Source: Deltaproteobacteria bacterium CG11_big_fil_rev_8_21_14_0_20_45_16
GTDB lineage: Bacteria; Bdellovibrionota; UBA2394
Direction: 5' to 3'
Length of the DNA: 64,000 nt
Assembly: GCA_002787535.1 (NCBI GenBank)
Contig: PCXB01000004.1
Span: 34,890 to 98,889 of the forward strand
In this document: piece after piece, positions 3,513 through 41,068 of the stretch
Numbering within the stretch: the stretch's first letter is position 1
Layout of the letters: each line of letters starts with the position of its first letter
Made by a program: the position numbers and the translations under genes
Notes under the pieces: model-generated
What the model saw: the letters and a program-made list of their open reading frames with translations, nothing else
What the model was told of the DNA's origin: nothing
Database searches by the model: none

Positions 3513-4538
3513 GTGGGCAAATTTAGTTATTTTTTAATATCAGTTATTTGTGTGGCGACTTATTCAGAGCTGAGTTTTGGCTGTCCTGCATTTCAAAAAC
3601 TCGCCACTAGAGATCACCCTACCTTGGATCGAGCTGCCCTTGAGTATCAATCTACGGGGACTCAAAGTTCACAAAACATTATGTATGGACTGATGTGGTC
3701 CTATATTGAAAGAACCGCAAAGAAACTTGCTAATCGACTGCCTCCCAATATTGAAATCGCGGATCTCGAGACAGAGGGCTTCCGAGGAATGTTGGATGCT
3801 GCCACAAACTTTGATGTAACCAAGGGGGCCGTATTCGCGACCTATTCTCAGCCAAGAATCTTGGGCGCCATGTTAGATTTTATAAGGGATACCTCAGAAA
3901 TTCCTCGAGTAACGCTTACTCGTAAAAAGTTTCTTAATCGATGCCTGGAGAGATATAGAACCACATACGGTCGAAACCCTTCCCCAGAGGAACTTAGAGA
4001 GGCAGTCACTCAAGCCGTTGAGGCTAAGCGCCAAGCAGCATTAAAGAAGGGGAAACTTCCAGCCAACTTCGAATCCATTCATAGTATTGATAAAATTTTG
4101 GATACACTCACAGTAAAGAACAACAGCTCTCTGGATAGATCAATTGATCGCCCCGAGTTCGAAAAAAGCAAAGATGATTTGGTAATTGATACGCTTTCTA
4201 GCGAAAGAGAAGGAAATCCACGAGACACTACAGAAGCTCTAAGTTTGTTTAAGTGGCTAGAAAGGAAATTAATTGACCCTGTTGATAGGGATATTTTTAG
4301 GCTCTATTTTGGCCGAGCCCTCAACTACCGTGAAGCCGGAGCCATTTTAGATCTAACTGAAAGTCGTATAAGTCAGCGTGTAAAACTGATCCGTGAGAGA
4401 CTGGTTCAAGCGATTTGGAGAGAGTTTCCTGATGTAGCCTCTCGATTGAATTCACAAGCTTCAGTTGTGTCGCGGAATATCCTTTTGGGCGGTGGACTAG
4501 AAGATCTTGAATTTGAACTTGAAACAACTCCTGAGTAA
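3513..4538 (+). CDS. FliA/WhiG-type sigma-70 factor homologue with N-terminal signal-peptide-like segment
   Basis: The 341-residue product has the parts of a group 3 (FliA-like) sigma factor. Region 2 is at about residues 57-125 (RLPPNIEIADLETEGFRGML, FATYSQPRILGAMLDFIRD). Region 3 is at about 145-160 (YGRNPSPEELREAV). Region 4.2 is at about 265-300 with the helix-turn-helix block LTESRISQRVKLIRERL. The unusual part is the start. The first ~24 residues (MGKFSYFLISVICVATYSEL, then SFG and Cys24) form a short basic-hydrophobic segment followed by a plausible signal-peptidase site. The GTG at 3513 directly follows an in-frame TAA, so no longer start exists. The next strong candidate is an internal ATG at residue 57, right at region 2, which would remove the hydrophobic part. 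No clear ribosome binding site precedes the GTG. The gene converges with the exported PrkA/SpoVR-like operon. Either the start is internal and this is a normal cytoplasmic sigma factor, or it is membrane-tethered or exported. Confidence 0.8.
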   Translation: MGKFSYFLISVICVATYSELSFGCPAFQKLATRDHPTLDRAALEYQSTGTQSSQNIMYGLMWSYIERTAKKLANRLPPNIEIADLETEGFRGMLDAATNFDVTKGAVFATYSQPRILGAMLDFIRDTSEIPRVTLTRKKFLNRCLERYRTTYGRNPSPEELREAVTQAVEAKRQAALKKGKLPANFESIHSIDKILDTLTVKNNSSLDRSIDRPEFEKSKDDLVIDTLSSEREGNPRDTTEALSLFKWLERKLIDPVDRDIFRLYFGRALNYREAGAILDLTESRISQRVKLIRERLVQAIWREFPDVASRLNSQASVVSRNILLGGGLEDLEFELETTPE

Positions 4539-4539
4539 C

Positions 4540-7500
4540 TTATTCCTTCCCAAAATAAGTCAGTAGCGCTCGAATCATACTCGCGCCATCCGTGCCAAGT
4601 TCGGCATATCCGATTTTCTTTGAATCTTCCTGGGATAAGGCTTTAAAGGCCTGGGATAAAACGGCCATCTCCCCGCGATACATTCCAAAAGCATCAATAT
4701 GAGCGTATCCCATATACTCGACTTGCTCAGCGAGTTTTCGGATCATCTCTACCGCCGCCTCAGTATTAAAATCATCTCCATCTGAAAAATTGAAAATATA
4801 TCGATTATATTGTGACCGAGGAAAGCGCTTAAGAACTTCATCAGCTTTCTTATAACCCGAAACGGCTTCTGTTCCGCCCCCAGTGTTTTTTCTGTAATAA
4901 TCCTTTTCGCTGAGTTCCTCAGCCTCCGTTCCATAGCCGATATAAACCAACTCAATATCATCGTAGACCTTGCGCAATAGCGCGGTGGTCAACTTGGCAA
5001 AAGTCTTCTCTATCTTTCGCTTGTGCTCGTCCATGCTTCCCGACCGATCGGCTACAAACATAATAACCGCTTTCATAAAGGGCTTGGGGTGTTCTTCGCG
5101 ACGATAAACATGCAAATGCTCGGGTTTCATTCTTGAATAGCCCAACTCCAAAATATCTTGGGGATCCATTTCTTCGATGTCTTTGCCTTCCTCAATGGCC
5201 GCCGCCATACCTAGTCGAATGGCTTCTTGAGTAGTTTTGACAATATGAATTTCACCATCGCTTTTTCGAACCGAAGATTTTCTTTGATAGCGAATATCTT
5301 TGTTATTACCTTCGGTCTCTCTAATATTTTTGAGACTTAATTTTTGCAAGAGCGCTTCTAAAAATACTTCTGTGGGAATTTTGAAATCTGCGGGATTATC
5401 CTCACTTCCTTGCTCACCTCGACCTTGCCCTGCTTGAGTGCTCCCTTCTTCCTCTCCGGGCTCACCTTCCTCAGACTCCTCTCCTTGTTCCCCTTGGCCC
5501 TGGCCTTTCCCTTGAGGCTCAGGCTTCCAACTTTCGCCAGGCAAGTAAGGACCTTCACCCAACTCAAGATCTTCATCACGAAGCATTGGGAAATTCGAAC
5601 TTTCTGGTTGCAAGTTCGAAGACCGCCCTAAGGCTTCTGCACCAAAGGCATCAAAAGGATTGGTCGCTAAATTTGCCCAGGAACGATCCGGCATACTCGT
5701 TGGCAATATCGAAGCACGCAAATTTCTTGCACGCTTATCCAATTGAAAGCTTGGAATGTCCGGCAAAACCTTAAGTCCAATGGACTTACCATCTGCCGAA
5801 ATATTTATGGCTCGCTCTCCCTTAAGAGCTTCTTCCATAATTCGATGAAGCCGATGACTCATAAAGTTCATATACTCGATAATGGCTCGACTTGCTGAAG
5901 CGGCATGAAGGGCATGGTTTTCAGCCGAATCAACTCGGATATTATTGGCGCTCATTACTGCATCGATGTATTTTTGGAAATCCGCACGCATCGGCTCAAT
6001 TACATAGCTAAGTTGAGAATTTGCGATGTATTCCTGCACACTGGAGTTTACAATTGACTTGATTTGTTCGGAGAGGGCTTGCTCGCCTTCTTCCACAATA
6101 AGTTCACCATTTGGCCGAACCGTTAGGCGTACGCGAAAGGTTTTAGCGAGATCTTCCATTCTTTCGATCGGAGGATAGGGCAGCTCTCCATAAAAACTTT
6201 CGAATTGTTTCCGCTTCACGGGGTCTTGAACAATGCTCAAGGGAACTTTTTCGTGAGCCATCCACAGACCCGAGCCAATCGTATCAAGAGTGACCGGTCT
6301 CTCTAGAATTTGCGCCAAGACATACAGTGTTGGGCCAATGGAAGCCGGATCCAAGGGAATATCAAGATAAGGATCGTGTCGGAGCAAAACTCGTCCGCTT
6401 TCGTTAAAATCAACGATTTCAATTCGAGCCTGTTTCAGATCCGGGTTGGCCACTCGATGAGCAATCAAATCTGCAATACGTTCGGGATCACGAGTGATCG
6501 CTAGGTTTTTGGGCCCTGCCTGGGGATCATCAACTTCATTTGGCTTTTGTTTTCGATAGAGCAAAAGCCCATGACGCTCAACAAATTCATGATTATAGGC
6601 CAGGCGCAACAAACTATAATCCGTTAGCCCACTCTGCATCAAATCTCTTGCGTAGTCCGCGAACTGGCGATCTTGCTCCAACACACTTAGGCTCACAATT
6701 TCCGGACGCCTTAAGAATCTTTCGTATAAAATGAACCAAGCCTGAACACCCGTAAAATATGGACTCGATAAATCCGGTCGAGCAGCGACTCCTGCATTGA
6801 TATTTCCAAACTCAATCGCATTCGCCGGGGAATTATATTTACTGTGCTTGAGAATCAGATACTCAGAAAAAGTTGCCCAACCTTCATTAATAATTCTTCC
6901 ATGATAGAAAACAGGATCAAGCCGCCGCTTTCTCTCAAAAAGTTCGAGTAGTTCCGTCTTCCACGACGCTGCAGAAGACGGGAGATTATATACCAGCGCC
7001 TGCATGACGGATCGCGTGGGAGCTAGGGGATGCCTCTGCTGAGTTTCGACGACCCTTTGGATGGGCTTTCCGTCGGCCCGCTCACTCTCTTGAAGACGCG
7101 CGCGTTGATTCACGACCGAATTCTCATAACGCTCAGGCAAATCAATACTGCCACGTGAAAAATCCTGTAGACTCACAAGGCTTTGAAGCCATTGATAGTA
7201 ACGAGTAACCTCCTCGTAGTCTTCCGTCTCGATCAACTCGCCCATTCGGTGCGCCAGCAGCGATGAATCAAAGATTCGATCCGGAGCTCGCTGTAACTTT
7301 AGAATAAAATGCTTATTAAAATCATAATGACCCGCGACATGGGATAAAACGATCAAAGTAGCTTCATCTGAACTTGTATCATTAAGATATTGAAGGTCCC
7401 GCGTATGACCCGCTTCGATAAATTCAAGGACGCTGGTTCCCATCGATGCCGCCTGAAGAATGGAGTAGCCATCTAACCAAAATGGCGCCGGATCGCCCAA

Positions 7501-7755
7501 ACCGCCTATCAGACCAACCAGGGAGTTGGGAGTTAGTGATTGAATCATCATATCGGGAACTTGATAACCAAGTTGCGGTGCAATCCTATGGTAGATCTCC
7601 TGAGAAGCATCGGCATAGAACTCCATCCGATCAGAGTCTCGCCCACTTCCGTGGATAACAATTTTTGCTAAATCATGAGAACAGCGCCCGCCATTGTGAG
7701 CGTGCAACGTGATCGGAGCTAAACAGGAAAAGAGCAATAAGCCTAAATTTCTCAT
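4540..7755 (-). CDS. Exported SpoVR-like / YeaH-YhbH (DUF444, VWA) fusion protein
   Basis: This 1071-residue protein starts with a signal peptide (MRNLGLLLFSCLAPITLHA). Residues ~45-500 resemble SpoVR: a His-rich block VLSHVAGHYDFNKHF (139-149), NEGWATFSEY (290-299) and the later 'LLRHDPYLDIPLD' strand all have counterparts in SpoVR/YcgB. A helical region and a Gly/Glu/Gln-rich acidic linker (about 748-790) follow. Residues ~790-1071 match YeaH/YhbH (DUF444), a von Willebrand A fold. It has the metal-site motif DRSGSMDE (from 903), the GGGTE turn (around 962) and SDGDD (991-995). In other bacteria SpoVR and YeaH/YhbH are separate cytoplasmic proteins encoded with the kinase PrkA; here they are fused and carry an export signal. 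It is the last gene of a three-gene operon, and its ATG overlaps the previous stop as ATGA. Biochemical activity is unknown. Confidence 0.82.
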   Translation of the reverse strand: MRNLGLLLFSCLAPITLHAHNGGRCSHDLAKIVIHGSGRDSDRMEFYADASQEIYHRIAPQLGYQVPDMMIQSLTPNSLVGLIGGLGDPAPFWLDGYSILQAASMGTSVLEFIEAGHTRDLQYLNDTSSDEATLIVLSHVAGHYDFNKHFILKLQRAPDRIFDSSLLAHRMGELIETEDYEEVTRYYQWLQSLVSLQDFSRGSIDLPERYENSVVNQRARLQESERADGKPIQRVVETQQRHPLAPTRSVMQALVYNLPSSAASWKTELLELFERKRRLDPVFYHGRIINEGWATFSEYLILKHSKYNSPANAIEFGNINAGVAARPDLSSPYFTGVQAWFILYERFLRRPEIVSLSVLEQDRQFADYARDLMQSGLTDYSLLRLAYNHEFVERHGLLLYRKQKPNEVDDPQAGPKNLAITRDPERIADLIAHRVANPDLKQARIEIVDFNESGRVLLRHDPYLDIPLDPASIGPTLYVLAQILERPVTLDTIGSGLWMAHEKVPLSIVQDPVKRKQFESFYGELPYPPIERMEDLAKTFRVRLTVRPNGELIVEEGEQALSEQIKSIVNSSVQEYIANSQLSYVIEPMRADFQKYIDAVMSANNIRVDSAENHALHAASASRAIIEYMNFMSHRLHRIMEEALKGERAINISADGKSIGLKVLPDIPSFQLDKRARNLRASILPTSMPDRSWANLATNPFDAFGAEALGRSSNLQPESSNFPMLRDEDLELGEGPYLPGESWKPEPQGKGQGQGEQGEESEEGEPGEEEGSTQAGQGRGEQGSEDNPADFKIPTEVFLEALLQKLSLKNIRETEGNNKDIRYQRKSSVRKSDGEIHIVKTTQEAIRLGMAAAIEEGKDIEEMDPQDILELGYSRMKPEHLHVYRREEHPKPFMKAVIMFVADRSGSMDEHKRKIEKTFAKLTTALLRKVYDDIELVYIGYGTEAEELSEKDYYRKNTGGGTEAVSGYKKADEVLKRFPRSQYNRYIFNFSDGDDFNTEAAVEMIRKLAEQVEYMGYAHIDAFGMYRGEMAVLSQAFKALSQEDSKKIGYAELGTDGASMIRALLTYFGKE

Positions 7756-10700
7756 GGCAATAAACCCCTCAATAAGTAATCACATCGACCGCTAAACCGT
7801 TCGGCCCACTTGCTTTCGCGTTCGGCTGTCTCATTGACGAGTCGAATGCTAGAGGCCAGACCCGAAATCCAGCTCTGGTCAAATGGTTTGAGGGGTGAGG
7901 AAGAATTTTTGCTAAACAGCAAGTCATGAACAAAGCTGGACTCTCCGATGGAAAGGTCCTCGCTCGCCAATCGCAAAGATTCTGACAAAAATCCCGAAAT
8001 CGCATCCCAGGGCATTTGATAGATCGCCCGATCAATGGCCATAACAAAAAATCTGATTGCCTCATACTGGCTCATTCTTAAGCCCTCTTTGGCTATCTCT
8101 CTTTGCTCATCGGTAATCTCTTCCGGACTGATCGAATCAACTCCAGATGCAGCCACCGAGAAAATTTCATCTACATAGGTCGCCAGTATTTTTCCAAAGT
8201 CAGCCACAACTTCGGATGAAGCTCTCGGCACTTCACTACCCTGTTTGAGCCAGGTTTCCACTTCAGGCAATCGATCCACATCTTGTACTCGAATCATTTT
8301 GGCCAATAACTGCTCGAAACCAGTCTGCAGGCCTCGAATGGTTTCGGCGAGCACGTGTTGCCGAGTCTTCTCTTCTGGCATCGAGCTAAAACTTCCAAAC
8401 TCTTGTGCGGCCCGAACGCTTGAAACTATTCCAACCGGCAATTTTCGGGAGTTATCTCCCTGAATTCTAGCTTGGGCGATCTCCGCCCTTAAGGTTTCCA
8501 TAAAAGCTTCTCGGGTCATCACATCCAAAATTCCAAAGTACTTGGAGTCAATGGTTAGTTCTTCTAGATTGGCTTTCGGATGTTCTTCGAGATGTCTAAG
8601 TATAGATTGAGCCAATGGTAGAACCGTTAGCTGGCGAACCTCAGGCCTTGAAGCAAAGCGCTCATCTTCGGATATGCTTCGAAGAACAAACTCAAAAGCT
8701 CGTCTTCTAAAATTTTCGATAAGAAATTTCATAAAGGAAACTTGGCCTCGGTGATCGCCGACTATAGGAATCGCTTCGAATTGCCGACGCACGCTCTCAC
8801 GGATCTGGCTTGCATTCCCTCCACCTGAAGCTTCGAAATGTGAACGCGAGGGTTCGCCTCGTGAGATCAGACGACGAGGGACAATCATAAAAAGATTGCC
8901 ATCACCACTAGGAAGCCCCAAAAAGGCATTAGAGGCTTCTGTCAAATAATCTCGAGCATCGGCATTTGGAAATTGGCTGCTAATTTTTTCGACGCTGTCG
9001 GCGCCGACTAGAATCAGCCTTTGTTGATTCATAAAACTTGAATCCGAAGCTCCCGAGAGAGTATCCAGAAGTGCTGAGGTCTTCGAACCCACTCCAAAAC
9101 TTCCAAAGTTGATAATCGCTCCAAAGCGTGTGAGCGTCGAAGGCTCAATTTCGCCGCGTGAATCTGCCAAAGTAGCCAAGGTGATTTCAACGTCAGTAGG
9201 ATGACCTTTATCTTTAGAAAATTTTGCAATTTTTTCGGAAGAGACTGTCGGATTAATAAACAAAAGAAGAGAAATATTTCGAACAGGTCTTTCAAAATAT
9301 TTTTCTCCCACCCGGCGCTTAAAGACGGGATTGTCTTGAAACTCTCGTACAAGTCTCAAAACTTCATTGCGCACGTTTTCGGAGGCCGTATGAAAGTCAT
9401 CCAAAATAATATAACCACGAGGACCGTTTGGCAGTGACAGGAACACCAGAAGATGCTGCATAAAAGCTTGAGCATCATTAACTTCATTCATGCTGATATA
9501 GAAACCGTTGGCCTCACGGTTCTCTTGAGGTTTAACCAAAAAATCATAAAGTTTGAGCCCTAGAAAATTAATGAGACTCATGGCCGTCCGAGTTTTGCCA
9601 GTTCCGGAGTTCCCCAATATAATGGCGGACGAGGGCATATTTCGAACTTGGTGAGAAGAAAGCTGGCCCTTCAAAACATCAAGAAGTCTTTCACGCAGTT
9701 CAAGGGGGGCTGGACATCCGGCTCGCTTCCACAAAAAGGAGGCATTCTCCTGACTAATAATTTGGAGAGGATCATTGGGGGGAAGATAGCGAACATTAAG
9801 GGGCGTTGAGAAGTTGGCGGCCAAAACTCGCTCTATCATTGCACGACCAAATTCTCGCCGGTTACGAAACTCCGAATTATAGAAAAGCTCTTGCTCAAAG
9901 TCTTCCAACAGCCACAAAAAGGACTCAAACACCGATCGCTTCTCATCCAAAGCAAGTCGCTCGGCACGATTGACCATAAAGCCAAACAATAAATCAAAGG
10001 CCTGTTCATTGCTGACTCCTTCGGCGCTAGTTTTCACGCCATCCAGACTCGGCTCATAGCCTAAGCTTGCAATGTCTGGTCGCCTGAAAAGGGATTTTAG
10101 TATGTTTTTTCGAAATTCAGCGTTGGGCTCACCCAATTCGACAACCTCAAATGAGTCGGATACGGCAAGTTCCCCTTCAATACCGGCAGAGGCGACAAGC
10201 TCTTCCCACTCTGCTTTCGTGCCAACTAAAATCATCGGAACACTTGCTTGAACCTCCTGAGACTTGTACGCGTTAAGCGGAATTCGCCTACCCTCCGTCG
10301 AAAGCAAATAAAGAATATGCGGCTCAATCGCCACTTTCTCAGCAGACTCGCCTACACTACCCAAAGAGATCCCACGCTCTCTTGGCTTCAAGGCCTCTAT
10401 ATAAAAATCCCTTTCGCCACCGGCCTTTGGACGATCCAAAGCCATTAAATTGCGAAGATTGGCCATCAATACAGGCCGCTTATTTCGGCGAACTTCTTCT
10501 CGAACGGCTTCAAGATTTTTCATCACCGTGGCTTGATCAGCTTTATCGCCGACTATTGACAGGGAATGGGCCGCTTCTTTTGTAGTCCAAAATTCTGCGC
10601 CCAACTCAGACTGTAATCTGAGAGCTTGGGGATAGTGGTAGGCATATTCTGCCAACTCAGGGCTTACGAGAAGCACGATATGCCTTGCGGACACGGCTGG

Positions 10701-13115
10701 ATTGGCCAGCTGCTCTAGTAAGTTTCGATACTTTGGGAAGACATTGCTTTGATAAATTGTGGCAAAACGGAGCTTTTCCTGTTCGGACTTATCTTTCGAG
10801 CGAGAGTCTCGATTTACAATTCGCCAAGAGTCTGATGACGCCGCCTCTTCTTTTTCCGCCCGTCTACCCAGTTCGTAATAGTTGCGAAACCCGTCTCGCT
10901 CAGAACCAAGGACTTCCAAATCCTTGCCATCCTGAACACGCATCAGCACCAGCTTTTCGTCGTACTCGCCTTGATCTCCCCGTTTGGTCCAGTAAATGAA
11001 TCCCTTATCGTCAAAAAGTACTCTCGACAAAACATCTTCACGATTCAAATCCGAGGTCGAAACTTGGCGTCCATCTCGACCGGCAACCTCCCAAGAATCT
11101 TGCGTCCTTCGAAGATTGATCTGAAACACAAAGGTTCCTTGGTCTCTAAAACTCGCAAAAGCATAAACAGGTCGAGAATCTCGTTTGGATTTTTCAGACC
11201 CAATATCGGAAGACGCCGGCGTCGCGATAAGTCCAAAATCCAAAAGCTGATCAGGATCAAAGCTTAGATTGTCTTTTTTAAGAATCGCGATGTCTTCCTT
11301 GCGAGCATTGTCGGTACTCGATTTGCTTACAGCTATATAAAGCTGAGAATATTTTTCCCCATCTTCTTTCGTCGGCGCCAATAAAAATAGGTTTATTTCA
11401 AGGCCATCCTGCAAACGCACGCTGTCCAAGCCCCAACTAATATCCTTTCTAACATTTGGATGATCGACGAGTCGGCCTCTCATCAAAAGAGCCTCTTGAT
11501 TATCTTTCCCATCAAAGGAATAGGGATAAATACCTGTTCTCAAATCCTTCCCTTCAGCGCTTTCGTATTCCAAATACTTAAAGCGATAACCAAGACTTCT
11601 TGTGGATTTTGGAGAAGGAAAAAAAATCCTTGTTTCTGAATCGGTAAGACTTTGAACAATATCTATATGCGGCGCCGTTAACCGATGGAGTTGGGTATAT
11701 TGATCATTATCAGTAGAATCTGGAGTGACCGCATCAAAAGCCAACTTGCCTCCGTACACGCCTACTCTTCTTTGAAGCTCTTTCGCATTAAAGAACCTAC
11801 CGGCTATCTCTTGTTGAGAAACCAAGCGAAGTGGCCCCTCTTCAATACGATAAGCCGAGGTTTTTTGGTCGGCATCTGTTTTCCACGAAACCAACAGAAG
11901 CTTAGAATCTGAAAGGTAGCGCCACTTAATATCTTTAATTTCCCCTTGAAATCCAAAGCTTGGCCGAAGGCGTAAACTCTGAAATCCATTTGCATTAGAA
12001 ATAAAGTAAATTTCTCCTGATTCCAAATAAACCATGGCGTGCCGACTATCTCGACTATTCTCCACCTTAGGTTCGTTTTTGGAGTCCAATAATGGTCGTC
12101 CGCGAAATGCGGGCTTAAGACTCGTCCAGTTATATGTTGAAACCACGGTCTCAGCCAGAAAGTAAGCTCCCTCTCCGTTTCGAGGATCAAAGCAAAGCTT
12201 GAACTCTTGGCCCGCTATTCGCACCATCTTAAATGGCAGCTCACCAATCTCGGGAGTTCCGGAAATAATATCCAATACGGGAAGCCAAGAAATAGGCGTT
12301 CGCAATCTTACGGTCTCAACAGTCGGAGAATCACGAAGCATTCCTCGCCACTGCTTCAAGCTAGGATTATCGAAGACTTGAGGCTCTTCAAAGGATCGAA
12401 GGAGATTGAGCGAAATCGCAGAAGGCCGTGGCGCCTTGGTAACAATCATCGATTCAAGATCAGATTTGGGATGAAAATTCCAATCCAAAAGAATCGGATC
12501 TTGTAACAGATTAATCTGAGTTCCTATCTGATTTCGGGGATCCAAGGCCAGAACGAAGCTAATACCCTCGCCGTGCACAGATTGAAACTTGGTTGAGACA
12601 ATAATTAATTGAAGAGGGCCATCAGGACCATCGACCAATCTCTGAATGGCACGTATATCGTCCAAGTTTTCAATTTTGGGAAGCTTAAAGCGAGCCTTAC
12701 TCACTGGATCTTTAATCTTGATAAGGTCGCTGCCAATTTCCGCAAAGCTACCCACGCTATCCTGAGCCGATTCAATTGAAAAAATTCCGAGACGGCCATC
12801 AACAACGCTCAATATCTCATAGCGGTCGGTAAATTTTGTGATCTCAAGCTGAAGCTGTACGCCTCCCACTCGAGGCGTCGGAAAAAAATTTCCATCAAAT
12901 ACTTTCTTCCATTTACCGTCGGCTCGAACGTAAAGGCCTGATGATTCGCGCCGTGAACTCCCCTGAGGATCGTCATAAACAATAAGAAAAGGCGAACCCC
13001 CTCCAAAAGCGCTAGTAATCACTTCTTCCGCACGTTGCGCGATGAGATCAGGAGTCATAAGCCCCCAGACTATCGCCGCGCCAAAGGTGAAAAGTTTCAG
13101 CGATACTTGCTTCAT
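7752..13115 (-). CDS. Exported giant protein: beta-rich N-terminus plus Clp-like tandem AAA+ region
   Basis: The 1787-residue product begins with a signal peptide (MKQVSLKLFTFGAAIVWGLM, then TPDLIA and Gln). Residues ~30-780 are strand-rich with repeated short beta motifs and no recognised enzyme motif; a propeller-like fold is possible but unproven. Residues ~830-1060 resemble a Clp-type first AAA+ module: FEVVELGEPNAEFRKNILK parallels the ClpB 'EPSVEDTISIL' segment. I find no Walker A there, so this module looks inactive. The second AAA+ module is intact, with Walker A GNSGTGKT (1168-1175), Walker B IILDD (1236-1240) and a possible arginine finger in LTRFG. The helical C-terminal ~350 residues are unassigned. 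The gene overlaps both neighbours by ATGA, so it should be made together with the PrkA-like and SpoVR/VWA proteins. An exported ATPase is odd, since the periplasm lacks ATP. Family assignment rests on motifs only. Confidence 0.75.
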   Translation of the reverse strand: MKQVSLKLFTFGAAIVWGLMTPDLIAQRAEEVITSAFGGGSPFLIVYDDPQGSSRRESSGLYVRADGKWKKVFDGNFFPTPRVGGVQLQLEITKFTDRYEILSVVDGRLGIFSIESAQDSVGSFAEIGSDLIKIKDPVSKARFKLPKIENLDDIRAIQRLVDGPDGPLQLIIVSTKFQSVHGEGISFVLALDPRNQIGTQINLLQDPILLDWNFHPKSDLESMIVTKAPRPSAISLNLLRSFEEPQVFDNPSLKQWRGMLRDSPTVETVRLRTPISWLPVLDIISGTPEIGELPFKMVRIAGQEFKLCFDPRNGEGAYFLAETVVSTYNWTSLKPAFRGRPLLDSKNEPKVENSRDSRHAMVYLESGEIYFISNANGFQSLRLRPSFGFQGEIKDIKWRYLSDSKLLLVSWKTDADQKTSAYRIEEGPLRLVSQQEIAGRFFNAKELQRRVGVYGGKLAFDAVTPDSTDNDQYTQLHRLTAPHIDIVQSLTDSETRIFFPSPKSTRSLGYRFKYLEYESAEGKDLRTGIYPYSFDGKDNQEALLMRGRLVDHPNVRKDISWGLDSVRLQDGLEINLFLLAPTKEDGEKYSQLYIAVSKSSTDNARKEDIAILKKDNLSFDPDQLLDFGLIATPASSDIGSEKSKRDSRPVYAFASFRDQGTFVFQINLRRTQDSWEVAGRDGRQVSTSDLNREDVLSRVLFDDKGFIYWTKRGDQGEYDEKLVLMRVQDGKDLEVLGSERDGFRNYYELGRRAEKEEAASSDSWRIVNRDSRSKDKSEQEKLRFATIYQSNVFPKYRNLLEQLANPAVSARHIVLLVSPELAEYAYHYPQALRLQSELGAEFWTTKEAAHSLSIVGDKADQATVMKNLEAVREEVRRNKRPVLMANLRNLMALDRPKAGGERDFYIEALKPRERGISLGSVGESAEKVAIEPHILYLLSTEGRRIPLNAYKSQEVQASVPMILVGTKAEWEELVASAGIEGELAVSDSFEVVELGEPNAEFRKNILKSLFRRPDIASLGYEPSLDGVKTSAEGVSNEQAFDLLFGFMVNRAERLALDEKRSVFESFLWLLEDFEQELFYNSEFRNRREFGRAMIERVLAANFSTPLNVRYLPPNDPLQIISQENASFLWKRAGCPAPLELRERLLDVLKGQLSSHQVRNMPSSAIILGNSGTGKTRTAMSLINFLGLKLYDFLVKPQENREANGFYISMNEVNDAQAFMQHLLVFLSLPNGPRGYIILDDFHTASENVRNEVLRLVREFQDNPVFKRRVGEKYFERPVRNISLLLFINPTVSSEKIAKFSKDKGHPTDVEITLATLADSRGEIEPSTLTRFGAIINFGSFGVGSKTSALLDTLSGASDSSFMNQQRLILVGADSVEKISSQFPNADARDYLTEASNAFLGLPSGDGNLFMIVPRRLISRGEPSRSHFEASGGGNASQIRESVRRQFEAIPIVGDHRGQVSFMKFLIENFRRRAFEFVLRSISEDERFASRPEVRQLTVLPLAQSILRHLEEHPKANLEELTIDSKYFGILDVMTREAFMETLRAEIAQARIQGDNSRKLPVGIVSSVRAAQEFGSFSSMPEEKTRQHVLAETIRGLQTGFEQLLAKMIRVQDVDRLPEVETWLKQGSEVPRASSEVVADFGKILATYVDEIFSVAASGVDSISPEEITDEQREIAKEGLRMSQYEAIRFFVMAIDRAIYQMPWDAISGFLSESLRLASEDLSIGESSFVHDLLFSKNSSSPLKPFDQSWISGLASSIRLVNETAERESKWAERFSGRCDYLLRGLLP

Positions 13116-15601
13116 CGTCGCTGTACCGACCGCACCTCTTGGATCAACCGTCGAACCGACTCGGGGGAATAGCCCAAGTTTTGTTCTAATGATCGCACGA
13201 CATCATCCGCACGTTGCCGCACTTGATCGGTCACTTGGCCTTCTTGACCGGCGACAACCGATAAGAGCGTATCCATATTCATGCGATTCGCTTCGAGTAC
13301 GGCGTCTGCTTGATATAAGCGAATAGCTTCCATCAATCCCTTGTGCTTTTGCTGGGCACCTGCACGCCCACCAGACTGCGTAGCCGAAAATTGTACGAGC
13401 CACTTTCCGATCTCCGGCACCTCGAAGCGGACTCGATTAACTCGAGCAAAAGCTTCACCTATCTTCTTCAAGCGCTCTCTATCGATCATCTGCTGATGAG
13501 AGTCAAAATAGGATTGAGCGTCCGGATCCACATGAAGAGCGGCGATTTCTTGAATCACTTCAGAATAAATCCGATCTACGACATCTGAATTGCCGCCAGC
13601 CACAGCAAACTGAAGATCTCGATTCATCGCCGGAAGCGTAAATTCGGACCAAACAAGTTGGGCATATTGGGCCACCAAAACAGCGGCTTCGGCCTGATCT
13701 TTAAACAACTCACCCTCTCGAATTTTTTCGATCAGTACGTCTCGGATAAGCATGGGTGTAATCACGCCGCCGCGATCAGCTTTTTGCGCGTGATAGGCCG
13801 CCTCGCTCCAAACTGAAACCGCTTCCCGATGCGATAGGCCGAAGGTTCCTTCGTCACTGGCTTCACTGATTTCAGCCAACTCCACAAGATTAGTTCTTGA
13901 GACTTCAGCCGTTCCCGTCAAAGCGCGCAGTCGCGAAACGGGATCGCGAAAAAGATTGCTGTTCGTTTTAACCATCGGAAACGCATCGGCAAAACGAACC
14001 TTGCTACGCTTAAAGTTGCTACGACTAAGGGACGCCAACATAGAGAGGAATTCCAAAGTATGAGGCATCACTTGAATGGCTTGCGCACCCTCCCCCAGTT
14101 GCAAAGCGTAACGACCCGCCGGACTAAGAATAGGACTTCGTGGATCTTGATTCGGAGGGAATAGTTCATCGAGTCGATTCTCTTCTTCGGCGCGAGGATC
14201 TACTGGAATAAAACCAGCGTTGGATTCTCCAAGACGACGCATATAGAGGTCGGGCATTTCCATCGCCAAGGTTTTCCCAATCGTGCTGGGTCGTATGCTG
14301 AGATTCATCTGAACCTCATCCAAGCGATCCAATAGTGGGGGGCGCTGCTCCTTAGCTCGAATTTTTCGAACATCTTCAGTGTTCGTCGCGGTCAACCATG
14401 TGATATCCGCTTCAATTGTTGGCACCCCGTTTGCAGATATTGTTCCCGACTGAAAGGCTTCTAAGAGTGTGCGCAACAAAGCATCTGGATTCTTCAAAAC
14501 TTCATCTAATACCGCCAAACTTCCGTTAGCCTTTGGAAGCCGTGATAAGTTCCAAGCCATAGGATGGTCGGCACCATAGGTCGCACCAACTAAGGCGTGT
14601 TCCGAGGCAAAAAGTGCGCGTTCATTAATTTCATCGCCTTGCGCAGTAATAAAAGGAGTGTTTTCTTCGGTCCCCAAAATCCGTCTGACAATTCGAACAT
14701 GCTTATTTAAGGCTTCGACAACCTCCATATTCGATAGAGGCCCTTTTTTAAGCTCAGCGTAATGTTGAATAATTTCTCGGCGAATAAAGTCAGTCTTGAA
14801 GTCTCGATTACGCTTAGGTAGGGGCTTCCGACCAATTCTTTCTTGAACGAGATCGGTGGTCATCGCTATGAGTCGATTTTGAAAGCTTTTAGGCAAAAGC
14901 ACAAAAGGCGAATCTGCCATCGGCGCAGGATAGCCCACGGTTGTCCCCGGCTCGCGTGCGGCTTTTGGTACAAAAGGCGCCGATCGAATAGAGGGAATTT
15001 GATCTAAACCTATGAACTCAAAAGTATAAGCATAGTACTGTGGAAACTTAAGCGTTGCCGTATAAAGACTGTTACGTAGAATTTTTAAAAAGAGAGATTT
15101 ACCAGTCCCCGGGTCGCCCGCCAAAAGCACAACATTTCTGCCGCTCTGACTGCCGCTGGCTTGTGCTTCAAAACTTTGGATCACCCTTTCGACAGCGCTG
15201 TATTGTTCGTTCAAGCGCAATCCACCTGCCAAAGGATGCCCACTAGATATTAGATTGTAGATTCGCCTAAGCCCCATTCGCCCCGTGGGATCAGGAACCT
15301 CTTCATAACCCGCGTCGCGGATGATGGAGTACACCCGCTGAGGGCTCCGCATGACGATAAAGGGATGCTTGAGGGCCAAGTTTTCAGCGTCGGGTCGAAT
15401 CAAATCGATTAACTGATGTCTTTCGGCCAGCGCCTTTTCCATATCGTCACTACTATTTAAGGCGGATTCAATATCTGTTTCCTCACCGGCTGCACCAGCT
15501 AGAAAGGCCCGACAAAGACCCTCGATTTCACCTTGAGCCCATAGCGAACTGCCCCCCATTAAAAATAATGCCACTATAGGTAGCGCAAATAATTTCCCCA
15601 C
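13112..15601 (-). CDS. Exported PrkA/YeaG-like AAA+ protein
   Basis: The chosen GTG at 15601 is preceded by AGGAGG (complement of 15612-15617) and gives 829 residues starting with a signal peptide (MGKLFALPIVALFLMGGSSL, cleavage near WAQ). A longer reading from 15727 is open but lacks this site. Walker A GDPGTGKS is at 162-169. The sensor-rich region NGSLAVLDEVLKNPDALLR then LLEAF, followed by LDRLDEV, aligns by eye with the PrkA block 'NRGMVEFVEMFKAP...LLTATQEG...LDR'. The C-terminal part (GLSHREAVSVWSEA; VDRIYSE; DRERLKKIGEAF) resembles the PrkA C-terminal domain. Known PrkA/YeaG proteins are cytoplasmic, about 630-645 residues, and are co-encoded with YeaH and SpoVR. This one leads a three-gene operon with the SpoVR-YeaH fusion and carries an export signal. 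Kinase activity, also debated for PrkA itself, cannot be judged from the sequence. Confidence 0.8.
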   Translation of the reverse strand: MGKLFALPIVALFLMGGSSLWAQGEIEGLCRAFLAGAAGEETDIESALNSSDDMEKALAERHQLIDLIRPDAENLALKHPFIVMRSPQRVYSIIRDAGYEEVPDPTGRMGLRRIYNLISSGHPLAGGLRLNEQYSAVERVIQSFEAQASGSQSGRNVVLLAGDPGTGKSLFLKILRNSLYTATLKFPQYYAYTFEFIGLDQIPSIRSAPFVPKAAREPGTTVGYPAPMADSPFVLLPKSFQNRLIAMTTDLVQERIGRKPLPKRNRDFKTDFIRREIIQHYAELKKGPLSNMEVVEALNKHVRIVRRILGTEENTPFITAQGDEINERALFASEHALVGATYGADHPMAWNLSRLPKANGSLAVLDEVLKNPDALLRTLLEAFQSGTISANGVPTIEADITWLTATNTEDVRKIRAKEQRPPLLDRLDEVQMNLSIRPSTIGKTLAMEMPDLYMRRLGESNAGFIPVDPRAEEENRLDELFPPNQDPRSPILSPAGRYALQLGEGAQAIQVMPHTLEFLSMLASLSRSNFKRSKVRFADAFPMVKTNSNLFRDPVSRLRALTGTAEVSRTNLVELAEISEASDEGTFGLSHREAVSVWSEAAYHAQKADRGGVITPMLIRDVLIEKIREGELFKDQAEAAVLVAQYAQLVWSEFTLPAMNRDLQFAVAGGNSDVVDRIYSEVIQEIAALHVDPDAQSYFDSHQQMIDRERLKKIGEAFARVNRVRFEVPEIGKWLVQFSATQSGGRAGAQQKHKGLMEAIRLYQADAVLEANRMNMDTLLSVVAGQEGQVTDQVRQRADDVVRSLEQNLGYSPESVRRLIQEVRSVQRR

Positions 15602-15782
15602 TATCGTTCCCCCTCCTGAAGTTGCTCGAAGATACAAATGAAATTGAAATGCAAAATTACTTTGAAAAATCCCCATCGTCCCCTCCATCACGTAACAGAA
15701 GGATAAGTTAGAGAAATTCGACTTCAAGCGTCAACGTCTAGTTGCATTGCGCCAAAAATTTGCGTCATAAACATTTGAATCG

Positions 15783-35004: not shown

Positions 35005-37110
35005 TTAATGCCATTGCTGATCGGTAAGACCAAAAAGATCCGAATCCGACAAACGATCATGACTTAAACTTAGCCATTCGGCCTGATTATCAACATCGAT
35101 AACACCAGGAAAGTCATTAAAGAAGCGTCGATCGTCGAATAAAAAGATCGAGTAATTAAAGCCTTCAATACAGCCATTTGTACAACTCCCGCCATCTCTC
35201 GGGTTTGTGTACATCTTCTTTAGGGGATTCGCCTCTTGCATCGTCAGTCCACCTCTAGCCACGAGTATTCCTAAATTCATCAGGGGCTCGAGGGGCGGCT
35301 GGTCTTGAATCTCGTGAAAGCTAAACTCGCCCTTTCCGCCAGAGCCACCACCATAATCATTGGGAGCATCCACTAAACCCCTAATCACAAAGCTTTTCGT
35401 TTGGATCTTGGCATCAATAAAAGCTACTCGAGAATTAAAAAAGTCATTGGAGCCAGCCTCGGCAAAGGATGAGACAGGAATCTCTTCGTCCTCCGACTGC
35501 AAACCAAAAATCGTATTTCCCGTTGATCCATTATAAACACGCCCACCATCTACGGGATTACCAAGACTGGATTTCAAACCCGTTGCGCTATAGGGGTCAT
35601 AAACGAGATAGCCCGTAGTCACAATCATCGCTCCTGACGTCTGATTCTCATTAAGAGCTGGGACTCCTTCGGTTACCGAACCTTGGGCTGTTGGGTCCTG
35701 ATAGGTCAGTGGATCAAACCCAGGCATAAATACTTTATCAGTCGATGCATCGGCATAACGAATAGACCCAGCCAAGAAAACATTTCCAGTTGCATAGATT
35801 CCGACTTTACCTTTGACGATATTGTCGCCAGAAATCTGGACCGGCTTTGTTGCATAAATGGCAGTCGCCCTATCCGTTAGAAGGTTCGTCACGACCGCAT
35901 CACTACAATCGGAAACTGTAACCTTGCCCTCGCCTCCGCCGCTTACTGAAAACTTAATATTACAACCATTGCTCGTAATTTTTATGATCGGATAGGGAGA
36001 ATTTTCTGGGTCCTGAGCGTAAGTTGCCACTTCTGCTACAGAAGCTTGAATCTGCCCCATAATTCCCTGTGACCCGCCAATTGGTTCCGTATCCGTTGAA
36101 TAGCCAGAATGAAAAATAACCGGCTCAGCATCTTCAAATTCCGGAGCGGGGGGGGCGCAAGAGGGCTCGCAACCAGGATGATCTTCGTAATAATTTAGGT
36201 TTTCAATTTCTGCCACTTTCAGACCCGAGGTTGTAAAGGGTCGCCAAGCATGGAATGAGTTTTTTCGACTATCGAGTCGGATGTAGTATTGGTTCCCATC
36301 ATCACAAATGATATCCGGAGAGTTAAAATGTACGCGCCCAAAGTAGTGGTTGCCAAAGAGCTGAAAGGGGTTTTCACAATCTGGCGTGGGAATATTCCCA
36401 AGGGCTAAGGAATAGTCGGAAAGACTGACTGGATGCACTTCAGCGACTTCGCGAAGTGTCTGAACAATCCCATCCTTTTCCGCCCGAATCTTAATTTCGA
36501 TTTTCTTAGGCAAATAGGTCCAATCTTTAAGCTGCCAACTTGTGCGCGGATAGGTGTCGGAATTCAGGGGGCAACCATCATACTCTCCGGTCCAATAGCC
36601 TGGAGAATCTGGGTTATTCGGATCTCCGTCCGAACCTGTCACCTTCTTTAAACAGCGTACCGAGAAACTATAATGCACATCTCCAGACTTCGTTACGGCG
36701 TCTGCCCGATAGCCTGCTTCCCTGGCCCAATCGATAAAGTCTTCCGCGAGATTAAATTCCTCACCATTGATGGCGATATTATTCTCATCGGATAAAAATA
36801 AATCATAAGTCAGCTTATCTCGATAGGCGGCAAATCGAGTCTCAGCCTCTGGCTCACCTAATTGGGCCTTTACCGCCCCAAAATACTGAATGCTCTTTAA
36901 GGTTCTTTTCTGAACATACTGGAAGGCCTCATCGAGACCCTGAGAGAGTGCAATTTTTTTTATATCGGCAGAACTAAGTGTCTTAGTGTTGCGAGAAATC
37001 TTTAAGACATAGGCTATCATTATTCCAACGATCAAAATTACGCCAAGGACAAAGGGGAGGGCGCTAGCCTTTCTCTTCGTTCTTTTAAAATCACAAAACT
37101 TACTTCTCAT
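35005..37110 (-). CDS. Large PilX/GspK-like minor pilin-type protein
   Basis: The 701-residue product has a basic N-terminus followed by one membrane helix (ALPFVLGVILIVGIMIAYVL) placed like that of PilX or GspK pseudopilins, which often lack the conserved Glu5. A helical continuation (IALSQGLDEAFQYVQKRTL) follows, then a very long beta-rich exported region with scattered cysteines and Gly/Ser/Asp-rich strands. Ordinary PilX is under 200 residues, so this is a pilin stem carrying a large domain. It is the last minus-strand gene of the pilus region, separated from the cysteine-rich prepilin by a plus-strand gene. Adhesin-like or priming function is inferred. Confidence 0.6.
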   Translation of the reverse strand: MRSKFCDFKRTKRKASALPFVLGVILIVGIMIAYVLKISRNTKTLSSADIKKIALSQGLDEAFQYVQKRTLKSIQYFGAVKAQLGEPEAETRFAAYRDKLTYDLFLSDENNIAINGEEFNLAEDFIDWAREAGYRADAVTKSGDVHYSFSVRCLKKVTGSDGDPNNPDSPGYWTGEYDGCPLNSDTYPRTSWQLKDWTYLPKKIEIKIRAEKDGIVQTLREVAEVHPVSLSDYSLALGNIPTPDCENPFQLFGNHYFGRVHFNSPDIICDDGNQYYIRLDSRKNSFHAWRPFTTSGLKVAEIENLNYYEDHPGCEPSCAPPAPEFEDAEPVIFHSGYSTDTEPIGGSQGIMGQIQASVAEVATYAQDPENSPYPIIKITSNGCNIKFSVSGGGEGKVTVSDCSDAVVTNLLTDRATAIYATKPVQISGDNIVKGKVGIYATGNVFLAGSIRYADASTDKVFMPGFDPLTYQDPTAQGSVTEGVPALNENQTSGAMIVTTGYLVYDPYSATGLKSSLGNPVDGGRVYNGSTGNTIFGLQSEDEEIPVSSFAEAGSNDFFNSRVAFIDAKIQTKSFVIRGLVDAPNDYGGGSGGKGEFSFHEIQDQPPLEPLMNLGILVARGGLTMQEANPLKKMYTNPRDGGSCTNGCIEGFNYSIFLFDDRRFFNDFPGVIDVDNQAEWLSLSHDRLSDSDLFGLTDQQWH

Positions 37111-38444: not shown

Positions 38445-40910
38445 TCAGATCGATGCGCCCCCTGTATCTTCAGAGCCACCTGTAGTGCCGCCTCCACCAA
38501 GACCGCAGAAATCTTCCATGGCTTCTTGCGCGCACTCCGGATCGACAACGCCACCCGGAGCACAGCTCGGAAACTGCGCCTGAATGGCGGCCGTGTTAAT
38601 GAGACTGATAGACGCTCTTTGTGGATTCAAGCAAGCACAACTTCCTTGGCCTTTGGTCGCCACAAACCAGTCGTTGTCCTTGGAAGGTACGTAGCCATAA
38701 AAGTTTGCTGCCGTAGAATCGAGAGCATCCAAAGGCATGCCCGCAAGCTCGCACGCACAATAGCGGCTAGTTGCGCCCCACGAACCTCCAGGCGAAGGTT
38801 CTGCCGGAACACTGGCTGGGAAGTTAGGGATAGGACCTGGCCGACGAATCATATGATTTTCCCCGCCCTGATCATCAAATTCAAATTTACAAAAGTTCGT
38901 TGTTTCTCCATCGGACTGCCCCCAAATGGGATCCCAGCAAATCTGAGGTCGCCCGTTAACGTTGTTATAATTATTTACCGCCGCCGGGTTAAGGTTTTCG
39001 AAGTAATCCATATCTCCCGCGTGGGCGACAAATCTGTCTTTCCAGTTTGGATAGTTGTAAGGAAAAAGGGCGGCCCCATCGGGGTAAATAGCATTGTAGC
39101 CTCCTGGCAAGCTAATCTGCCTAGAGGAACCCGTAAAAAACAATGTCTCCGCACATTTGCAAGCTGGCGACAAATCTGCCGGATCTTCACTCTGACCTCT
39201 CAGCACAAGATATTTTCCTGCGCCGGGACCAGAAGAAATCCAACCCCACTCGTTTGTATCGGGGTAGTCGACGCCAGGCAAATCCAAGTTTAAACCGAAT
39301 GCTCCATCATCTATGCTAATGATCTTTTCCTGGTTATTAACGTATTTCGATGGAACCTCAACGTCACAATTGATCGGTCCCGACACTTCGTTTCCACACT
39401 TGCCGTTTATTGAATCCAGGGCGCCCGAAAAACTCCACTGGAAACTTGGATCAGCATCTGATCCCAAAGGATCACAAAGTCCTTGAACATAACCAACTCC
39501 CTGAGTTACCGAATCGGCATCCTCGAAACGACAGGTGTTAAGCATCCGGTAGCGCCCACAAATATTGGGAAGACAATAGGCAAACCAAGGATTGTCGACC
39601 CGATTCATATGCGTACAGGAGTTCCAGCAAATTTGCCCGGACTGCGCCTCTAATTTATTTCGATAGAGACAACAGTTTTGCCATCTAGAGTTATGGGTCG
39701 CTATTTGCCAGGAATTAAAATTATCATCTCCCTTGCATAGGCAGTAAGGTGAGCCGGGCTTCCAATCGTTATTCGTATAAAAATCGGCACACTCTGGCTT
39801 GCAACGAAGATGTTCAAAATTGTCTCCATCGCAATTGGAGGCCGGACCGCTTAAATCCAAGTAGTTGGCTGAGCCCCAGTTGCGGGGATCAAAGCGCGAT
39901 GGAGTTGAAGAAAAAATCGGATCCATTAAGTTCAGCTCTTCACTGGTCGAGCGGTTTTCGGGATGCCGCGCATCGTATTCCAACAAAACTTTGGTATAAA
40001 CCAAGTTGTTATAGTTACAGCCCGCCAGATTCCAAGCCGTTGAATTAAATCGAAAGTCTTCAACCCCCGCACCCATAGATTCGGGATTGCAGGGATCCCC
40101 TACTCTTCCAATGGCCGCGACATTCTTTGGCATCAACTTATAATAAACTTGAAACTTTTGAAGATCCGAAATTAACAAGCGACTCTGCTCCAATTTCTCT
40201 TGAGACGATAACGCTGTAAATTCTTGCCTTGATCGATCCGAGATAATCCGTAAATCTTTTTGTCCTCCGCCAATGCTCTGAGCAAAATAAAGATCCGCCT
40301 GAATAGGAATCGCAACCGGTCTTGTTTGAAAACCCCCTGGATTGTTGAAGTAGTCCGGCAATGCCGGCTCAACGACTATTTCAGCATAATCCGCTTGTAA
40401 ACTTACCGATTGAATCCTTGCCAATGCCGTTCGCCCCTCAGCCGCGACCAGCAGTTGCTTTTCGTCCTGCAAAACTTCGAGAGGAATGCTTTGTGAAGGA
40501 TCCAGGGACACTTCGATCGTGCTCGTTCCTCCACCCTGTAGAACCGCATCTCGTAACTGAAAACTGACTCCGCGATTACCCGACGAAAAGGAATATACCA
40601 GAATGGCATCATCTTCACTCTCCGGATCCGGATAGGGCCAACTTTCGACGCCAAAGGGGCCGGGAGCACCTGCACCCGCCTGGTCACCAAATGTAAAATA
40701 AATCGAATCCCCCAATTGGCCCGACGATATTAGCTCAAACCTTTTGTAAGCATCCCACTGTAAAGATTGATAACGAATCTGTCGGCTCTTTTTGTAAAAA
40801 TTGCCTGCGACTAAGGCGACACCTCCGGCAATAACCCCAAGCAAAGCTAGAACGACCATTAACTCAACCATGCTGTAAGCTTTTTGGTACAATTTATCAT
40901 TACGAAACAT
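38445..40910 (-). CDS. Giant cysteine-rich protein with type IV prepilin N-terminus
   Basis: From the ATG at 40910 (or the GTG at 40919) the product is about 821 residues. It begins with a class III prepilin signal: KAYSMVELMVVLALLGVIAG, with Glu5 of the mature helix present. After a short stem (about residues 45-130) comes a very large region with some 40 cysteines, many in pairs or clusters (CLCKG, NCCLYRN, CWNSC, CKCAE, CACEL, CACLN), many Asn/Gly/Asp/Trp turns, and a Gly-rich tail. Minor pilins are normally 150-300 residues, so this looks like a pseudopilin with a disulfide-rich tip domain, possibly an adhesin. It is downstream of the TPR gene and pilMNOPQ-accBC on the same strand. Confidence 0.7.
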   Translation of the reverse strand: MFRNDKLYQKAYSMVELMVVLALLGVIAGGVALVAGNFYKKSRQIRYQSLQWDAYKRFELISSGQLGDSIYFTFGDQAGAGAPGPFGVESWPYPDPESEDDAILVYSFSSGNRGVSFQLRDAVLQGGGTSTIEVSLDPSQSIPLEVLQDEKQLLVAAEGRTALARIQSVSLQADYAEIVVEPALPDYFNNPGGFQTRPVAIPIQADLYFAQSIGGGQKDLRIISDRSRQEFTALSSQEKLEQSRLLISDLQKFQVYYKLMPKNVAAIGRVGDPCNPESMGAGVEDFRFNSTAWNLAGCNYNNLVYTKVLLEYDARHPENRSTSEELNLMDPIFSSTPSRFDPRNWGSANYLDLSGPASNCDGDNFEHLRCKPECADFYTNNDWKPGSPYCLCKGDDNFNSWQIATHNSRWQNCCLYRNKLEAQSGQICWNSCTHMNRVDNPWFAYCLPNICGRYRMLNTCRFEDADSVTQGVGYVQGLCDPLGSDADPSFQWSFSGALDSINGKCGNEVSGPINCDVEVPSKYVNNQEKIISIDDGAFGLNLDLPGVDYPDTNEWGWISSGPGAGKYLVLRGQSEDPADLSPACKCAETLFFTGSSRQISLPGGYNAIYPDGAALFPYNYPNWKDRFVAHAGDMDYFENLNPAAVNNYNNVNGRPQICWDPIWGQSDGETTNFCKFEFDDQGGENHMIRRPGPIPNFPASVPAEPSPGGSWGATSRYCACELAGMPLDALDSTAANFYGYVPSKDNDWFVATKGQGSCACLNPQRASISLINTAAIQAQFPSCAPGGVVDPECAQEAMEDFCGLGGGGTTGGSEDTGGASI

Positions 40911-41068
40911 ATGACTCACATTTCCGCCACCGATGGACAGCCCATTATGTATGAGCGATGACATCTTGAAAACAGAAAATCCCCAATATCCCACTCGTCA
41001 TCGCAAAGTGTAGCAGTCTAAATTAATTGCTGAGCCGTCGGTAGAGTTTTGCGGAGCTGGTTCTAGAC

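What the first reader, a model, noticed from the sequence alone, without database searches (positions are those of the whole stretch)
4540..15601. An apparently exported PrkA-SpoVR-YeaH system in one coupled operon
Seen: three minus-strand genes overlapping by ATGA encode a PrkA-like AAA+ protein, a Clp-like giant and a SpoVR-DUF444 fusion, and each begins with a signal-peptide-like segment. The PrkA start is set by a strong AGGAGG. Known: PrkA/YeaG, YeaH/YhbH and SpoVR/YcgB are co-encoded, cytoplasmic and linked to stress or sporulation. Inference: this is a relocated, membrane-facing or secreted version of that module. ATPases outside the cytoplasm need an ATP source. Possibilities are membrane anchoring with a cytoplasmic body, action inside another cell (if the host is predatory or symbiotic), or use of protein folds without ATP turnover.
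Basis: partly seen in the sequence, partly recalled or inferred. Interest (0 to 1): 0.9.

Follow-up and report, generated by a model that had tools for sequence, protein, structure and literature searches.

The report
Exported AAA+ machine of predator bacteria
Bacteria of the Bdellovibrio group carry, beside the usual internal copy, a second and fast-evolving version of a widespread bacterial stress-protein trio whose members begin with predicted export signals, so this ATP-driven machine likely works outside the cell that makes it, perhaps inside its prey.

Summary
Observation confirmed and extended. Window 4540-15601 (- strand) holds a coupled operon: PrkA-type AAA+ (GTG 15601, AGGAGG 10 nt upstream), a 1787-aa giant (AAA+ motifs; beta-rich, perhaps propeller-like N-terminal part) and a SpoVR-DUF444 fusion. 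Each starts with a Sec-signal-like segment. The cassette is a family of its own: the giant is in 26 of 368 genomes of the phylum (Bdellovibrionota), gene order is kept in 24 of 25 loci with giant and fusion, and its SpoVR parts form one clade apart from the cytoplasmic paralogue, which the window's genome also has. A simple signal test passes 54 of 67 cassette ORFs and 0 of 46 cytoplasmic control rows. Independent support: cysteine is about fivefold rarer than in those controls, and what remains sits near one end of each protein. Walker A and B and SpoVR HxxGH...EG motifs are conserved, so 'folds without ATP use' looks unlikely. Beside the operon, 3513-4538 (+) encodes a sigma factor with a signal-like N-terminus, kept in the one full-length relative found. 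Best reading: an exported AAA+/vWA remodelling machine, likely acting where another cell supplies ATP. Export is well supported by sequence; destination and target are inferred.

The parts
13112..15601 (-). PrkA-type AAA+ protein, 829 aa from GTG 15601, exported paralogue; single cysteine at residue 30
15536..15601 (-). signal-peptide-like segment of PrkA (VGKLFALPIVALFLMGGSSLWA|QG)
15612..15617 (-). AGGAGG ribosome-binding site, 10 nt before GTG 15601
7752..13115 (-). giant, 1787 aa: beta-rich, perhaps propeller-like N-terminal part; AAA+ motifs GTGKT 1171-1175, DD 1239-1240; invariant cysteine 1778
13038..13115 (-). signal-peptide-like segment of the giant (cleavage after LIA is my reading; the script put it at residue 18)
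4540..7755 (-). SpoVR (125-407) - DUF444/vWA (882-1044) fusion, 1071 aa; invariant cysteine 25
7699..7755 (-). signal-peptide-like segment of the SpoVR-DUF444 fusion (MRNLGLLLFSCLAPITLHA|HN)
3513..4538 (+). sigma-70 family (FliA-like) factor with signal-like N-terminus, convergent neighbour; belongs to the system only by inference
3513..3581 (+). signal-peptide-like segment of the sigma factor (MGKFSYFLISVICVATYSELSFG|CP, cleavage site my reading)

Best explanation
The operon encodes three proteins with predicted Sec signal peptides (PrkA-type AAA+, a giant AAA+ protein and a SpoVR-DUF444 fusion) that likely form an ATP-driven protein-remodelling machine exported by Bdellovibrionota, which would work where another cell, most likely prey, supplies ATP. 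Mechanism (inferred by analogy with MoxR-vWA pairs): the PrkA ring and the DUF444 vWA domain act as AAA+ motor and metal-dependent substrate adaptor, the giant adds a second AAA+ motor on a propeller-like scaffold, and the SpoVR part, which keeps a zinc-peptidase-like HxxGH...EG motif (likeness recalled), acts on the presented substrate. The conserved cysteine near one end of each protein is predicted to tie the parts together by disulfide bonds after export. In the window's lineage a likewise exported sigma factor would reach the same compartment. Shown by sequence: conserved cassette, signal-like N-termini, cysteine pattern, intact catalytic motifs. Inferred: assembly, ATP source, destination, substrate.
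For: Signal-like N-termini in 54 of 67 cassette ORFs vs 0 of 46 control rows; more positive charge on the N side in 55 of 58. Cysteine 0.17, 0.16 and 0.30% in PrkA, giant and fusion against 1.02% in cytoplasmic paralogues (Fisher odds ratio 0.19, rows not independent). One invariant cysteine column: fusion 22 of 22, giant 13 of 13; 25 of 29 giants over 700 aa with their own stop have Cys in the last 25 residues. Walker A lysine 15 of 15 PrkA and 13 of 13 giants; SpoVR H139, GH142-143, EG291-292 in 22 of 22. Giant in 26 of 368 genomes; fusion directly after giant in 24 of 25 loci holding both; exported SpoVR one clade. vWA fold supported, NorQD complex among the matches. Native Sec signals drive a reporter into the medium in B. 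bacteriovorus (PMC12622784, passages).
Against: No SignalP run and no experiment; the signal rule is loose (it also passes 1 of 10 other sigma-type ORFs of the genome). No outer-membrane or prey-membrane route identified. Host is an unnamed draft genome; predation is inferred from the phylum only. No match in 342 of 368 genomes of the phylum, so not needed for predation in general. PrkA cysteines do not fall in one alignment column, and 4 of 29 giants lack the terminal one. No DsbB match in the window's genome, though two DsbA matches exist. Giant fold model is low confidence (pLDDT 65.5). The sigma factor is seen beside the cassette only in the window and, by inference, in one relative.
Confidence: 0.45

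Rival explanations
1. The trio stays in the producer's own periplasm or on its surface and is driven by ATP that leaks from lysed prey, or works slowly as an envelope chaperone.
For: Signal peptides alone take a protein only to the periplasm (established knowledge); the conserved terminal cysteines fit an oxidising compartment.
Against: No ATP supply is known there (established knowledge); both AAA+ motors keep their ATP motifs over long divergence; a sigma factor (neighbour) makes sense only where an RNA polymerase is.
Confidence: 0.27
2. The proteins use the AAA+ and vWA folds as scaffold or adhesin without ATP turnover, as MIDAS adhesins of Bdellovibrio do.
For: A surface vWA/MIDAS protein acts in prey invasion in B. 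bacteriovorus (PMC11003981, listing and passages); MIDAS motif mostly kept here.
Against: Walker A lysine 15 of 15 and 13 of 13, Walker B acidic residues kept.
Confidence: 0.13
3. The hydrophobic segments are anchors, or start codons are misplaced, and the bodies are cytoplasmic.
For: Downstream in-frame starts exist; no SignalP run; the rule used can pass a non-exported ORF.
Against: Signal-like segments recur in 54 of 67 cassette ORFs and 0 of 46 control rows; charge bias points C-out in 55 of 58; cysteine depletion; AGGAGG placed for the GTG.
Confidence: 0.06
4. It is a selfish or conflict cassette spread between lineages, acting against competitors or phages rather than prey.
For: Patchy (26 of 368 genomes), long branches and families mixed in the tree; MoxR-vWA ternary systems are described as conflict systems (PMC7159879, passages).
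Against: No toxin effector or immunity gene recognised among the neighbours read by eye; the giant had no match in the plasmid collection.
Confidence: 0.09

Closest known systems
PrkA/YeaG - YeaH (DUF444) - SpoVR/YcgB cytoplasmic module
   Same: Same three domain families; AAA+, vWA and SpoVR motifs kept
   Different: Signal-like N-termini, SpoVR and DUF444 fused, extra giant AAA+ protein, cysteine depletion; in 10 of 10 genomes of the 97-genome search with a long exported-type hit, an ordinary YeaH-sized hit is present too
MoxR-vWA ternary systems (VMAP, iSTAND, FtsH, beta-propeller; PMC7159879)
   Same: AAA+ motor with vWA partner and a third conserved protein, one class with a propeller (passages)
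   Different: Motor is PrkA-type; bpMoxR model scores 13.3 bits against a cut-off of 27; exported; no known effector
NorQ-NorD and other MoxR-vWA chaperone pairs
   Same: vWA of the fusion matches NorQD complex chains in PDB
   Different: Known pairs are cytoplasmic (recalled) and lack SpoVR and the giant (recalled)
Bdellovibrio MIDAS adhesins (Bd0875 and kin, PMC11003981)
   Same: Surface proteins with vWA/MIDAS domain in the same phylum (passages)
   Different: No AAA+ partner mentioned in the passages seen; Bd0875 and Bd1483 carry a lipobox, 0 of 58 rows here

Membership tests
PrkA family (PF08298/PF06798) | AAA_PrkA and PrkA C-terminal domains above cut-off | tested here: met
   window 30.5 and 32.4 bits, cut-off 25; 12 and 11 of 15 members match at E<=0.01; PDB 9xip, serine protein kinase, E 8.4e-34 with the profile
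PrkA family (PF08298/PF06798) | intact Walker A and Walker B | tested here: met
   Walker A lysine 15 of 15; Walker B acidic pair in 15 of 15, its D being E in 2
PrkA family (PF08298/PF06798) | cytoplasmic location (no signal peptide) | tested here: not met
   signal-like N-terminus in 13 of 16 exported-type ORFs, 0 of 3 cytoplasmic control rows; sequence test only
SpoVR (PF04293) | SpoVR domain above cut-off | tested here: met
   40.9 bits, cut-off 27; matched in 22 of 22
YeaH/DUF444 (PF04285) | DUF444 domain above cut-off with vWA MIDAS motif | tested here: met
   123.7 bits, cut-off 27; 22 of 22; MIDAS DxSxS in the window, variants in some relatives; vWA folds
MoxR-vWA-beta-propeller ternary system | bpMoxR-type MoxR component | tested here: not met
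   13.3 bits against cut-off 27; 1 of 15 members, E 0.0026
MoxR-vWA-beta-propeller ternary system | beta-propeller component | tested here: inconclusive
Sigma-70 family (neighbour 3513-4538) | regions 2 and 4 above cut-off | tested here: met
   31.1 and 33 bits, cut-offs 24 and 24.1; no region 3 match listed
[quoted passage not shown]
   K1174, D1239, D1240 invariant in 13 of 13; curated Pfam cut-offs of AAA models not reached by the window protein

The most novel reading that the evidence does not exclude
A predatory bacterium injects a complete AAA+ remodelling machine, plus in some lineages its own sigma factor, into the prey cytoplasm, where prey ATP drives it and prey RNA polymerase is redirected: a cell-to-cell takeover kit in which the weapon is a displaced copy of the bacterium's own stress-survival module, assembled through one disulfide-forming cysteine per subunit.
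Probability: 0.2. Interest if true: 0.97.

Novelty: new variant of a known kind. Interest (0 to 1): 0.86.

Why it matters
AAA+ machines are treated as intracellular because they need ATP. A family whose signals and cysteine pattern say 'exported' while its ATP sites stay intact makes a clear question testable: where does an exported AAA+ machine get its energy? It would also give a first handle on what predators do to prey from within, and an exported sigma factor would be a new class of effector. My phrase searches for periplasmic, secreted, exported, extracytoplasmic or extracellular 'AAA+' and for secreted, exported or translocated sigma factors or sigma factor effectors returned 0 papers, and the two papers holding both 'Bdellovibrio' and 'SpoVR' mention SpoVR only as an ordinary gene in the passages seen; these are exact-word searches of an open-licence library only.

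Tried and rejected
Sigma factor as a standard part of the cassette: rejected; searching 97 genomes with it gave matches that, outside the window's own gene and in the listed rows, all begin at residue 34 or later, after the signal-like segment, and of the best 120 of 194 homologues listed only P0009 besides the window's own protein covers the full length. Uniqueness of its signal: weaker than I first thought. The same rule run on the 10 other sigma-region-2 ORFs of the genome passes 1 (L137, through an upstream TTG, core 2.21 against 3.06) and rejects 9; earlier looks were, which read 5 of 11 loci on the wrong strand. So the sigma signal rests mainly on P0009. Plasmid origin: no match of the giant in the plasmid collection; phages not searched. 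Lipoprotein or Tat export: 0 lipobox-like and 1 twin-arginine-like of 58. PDB relatives by sequence: none for the fusion at E<=0.1; for the giant only weak P-loop matches, mostly ClpX. The giant's AAA+ half was not folded (both jobs went to its N-terminal part and the fusion). Zinc-peptidase reading of the SpoVR part rests on the motif alone: none of the 50 listed fold matches names a zinc peptidase, and the model there is weak in places. (sigma family over 368 genomes) was run with an unsuitably strict limit and tells nothing. Other phyla were not searched genome by genome; protein database searches, in which only about 8,000 candidates were scored each, found 6 fusion relatives (one, P0005, without the DUF444 part; P0007 matched 9% of the query and was dropped) and 2 giants besides the window's own.

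Signal test: a home-made rule (hydrophobic core, K/R before it, small residues at -3/-1; best start in the first 60 codons, same for controls). Of the 13 misses in 67, 6 are internal pieces of broken ORFs, 1 is masked with N, 5 have a hydrophobic start but fail one criterion, and 1 (L117 PrkA) has no start within 60 codons that gives a core. Among the passes, the L116 giant passes only through a later start, and some predicted cleavage sites are doubtful. Three control rows only stand for PrkA, one of them a duplicate and one partial. In the cysteine count, ORFs with masked residues beyond position 60 were dropped, signal segments were removed only where called, and the comparison group of other signal-bearing ORFs (1.18%) is raised by two cysteine-rich proteins.

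Full report
What is there. On the minus strand, 13112-15601, 7752-13115 and 4540-7755 form a tightly coupled operon with two ATGA overlaps. The first gene starts at GTG 15601, ten bases after AGGAGG. Pfam puts PrkA and AAA_PrkA, SpoVR and DUF444 above their cut-offs; the giant has only sub-threshold AAA matches. Across relatives, DUF444 and SpoVR match 22 of 22 fusions, AAA_PrkA 12 of 15 and PrkA 11 of 15.

It is a family, not an oddity. Searching 97 genomes of the phylum (own included) with the fusion gave long hits to an exported-type protein in 10, one of them cut by a contig end and one with a stop inside; all 10 also hold an ordinary 364-399 aa YeaH-type hit. The giant, for which that search shows no cytoplasmic counterpart, matches in 26 of 368 genomes (own included), 23 of 181 genera, 17 of 234 good-quality genomes. 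Four named records are Bdellovibrionaceae, Bdellovibrionia, Bacteriovoracia and 'Deltaproteobacteria'; the two classes belong to Bdellovibrionota, as does the family (recalled). In fetched loci the fusion directly follows the giant in 24 of 25 loci with both, at gaps of -107 to +9; the exception is L042. PrkA precedes the giant in 18 of 18 loci with both, divergently in one. In a quick tree of 27 exported-type and 20 cytoplasmic SpoVR rows the exported ones are one side of a fully supported branch, with longer end branches and families intermixed, which fits one origin, fast change, and loss or transfer.

Export. A simple signal-peptide rule passes 13 of 16 PrkA, 19 of 24 giant and 22 of 27 fusion ORFs, and 0 of 3 and 0 of 43 control rows; it is loose, as it also passes 1 of 10 other sigma-type ORFs. 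Charge is more positive on the N side in 55 of 58 rows, which places the body outside; 0 lipobox-like and 1 twin-arginine-like segments. Independent of start-codon choice, cysteine is rare: 25 in 14,664 residues of PrkA, 72 in 45,522 of the giant, 72 in 24,246 of the fusion, against 183 in 17,938 of cytoplasmic paralogues. What remains is ordered: one column invariant near the mature N-terminus of the fusion (22 of 22), one near the C-terminus of the giant (13 of 13 aligned; 25 of 29 over 700 aa with their own stop), and in PrkA one within 22 residues of the predicted mature N-terminus in 13 of 13 rows with a called signal, though not in one alignment column. In an oxidising compartment such lone cysteines suggest disulfides between subunits; that is inference. 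The window's genome has two DsbA matches and no DsbB match.

The neighbour. 3513-4538 (+) lies one base from the fusion's stop codon, convergent, and encodes a sigma factor (regions 2 and 4). Its GTG start follows a stop codon directly, without a clear ribosome-binding site, and it begins MGKFSYFLISVICVATYSELSFG-C. The only full-length relative listed, P0009, is 57% identical overall, with the hydrophobic segment kept though its letters change. P0009, P0001 and P0129 report the same longest contig (33,049 bases), so the genes are probably linked there too; I infer this. Of the 10 other sigma-region-2 ORFs of the genome, 9 fail the signal rule and 1 passes weakly through an upstream TTG.

How it likely works. 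MoxR-vWA pairs use the vWA domain to hold a substrate and the AAA+ ring to remodel it (PMC7159879, passages). Here the ring would be PrkA, the vWA is in the fusion, the giant brings a second motor and a scaffold, and SpoVR may be the acting enzyme. ATP is not known as a steady supply outside cells (established knowledge), so another cell is the most economical source. In B. bacteriovorus native Sec signals release a reporter into the medium, and one such protein is cited as secreted into the bdelloplast (PMC12622784, passages); Sec is discussed as the route for enzymes sent to prey (PMC2797640, passages). The ordinary operon bd0228-bd0231 is described among putative attack-phase core genes (PMC5430801, passages). 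PrkA of one Bacillus species showed negligible kinase and protease activity in vitro (PMC13001217, outline and abstract), so the chemistry of the module is open.

Limits. No wet data, no SignalP, shallow alignments for models, mostly draft genomes, no route across outer membranes, no isolate. Most genomes of the phylum show no match (342 of 368).

Noticed in passing
window 3513-4538 (+): Sigma-70 family factor with a signal-peptide-like N-terminus, kept in P0009; less conserved than the cassette in what seems the same relative (57% against 86% for part of the giant and 90% for the fusion).
   Followed up: partly
L040 1912-2448 (+) and L110 1757-2299 (+): ORFs resembling a tyrosine-recombinase N-terminus (by eye) about 320 bases upstream of the exported prkA in two genomes.
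   Followed up: no
L042 325-1215 (-), L123 6173-6967 (-) and 2703-5990 (-): Extra genes with signal-like starts (264-296 aa and 1095 aa) beside the giant in two genomes of one family, which also carry two giant copies each.
   Followed up: no
L105 1-7782, L111 1743-7975, L112 2158-8314, L038 24-3515: Cassette genes split into several ORFs; broken genes or assembly errors.
   Followed up: no
window 38445-40994 (-): 849-aa protein with a type IV pilin-like N-terminal segment (by eye), unusually large, near a 701-aa PilX-like candidate (35005-37110).
   Followed up: no
G000:C79 24249-31060 (L043 12249-19060): Ordinary cytoplasmic PrkA-YeaH-SpoVR operon of the same genome, with a further gene of 586 aa between YeaH and SpoVR (L043 13864-15624).
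   Followed up: partly
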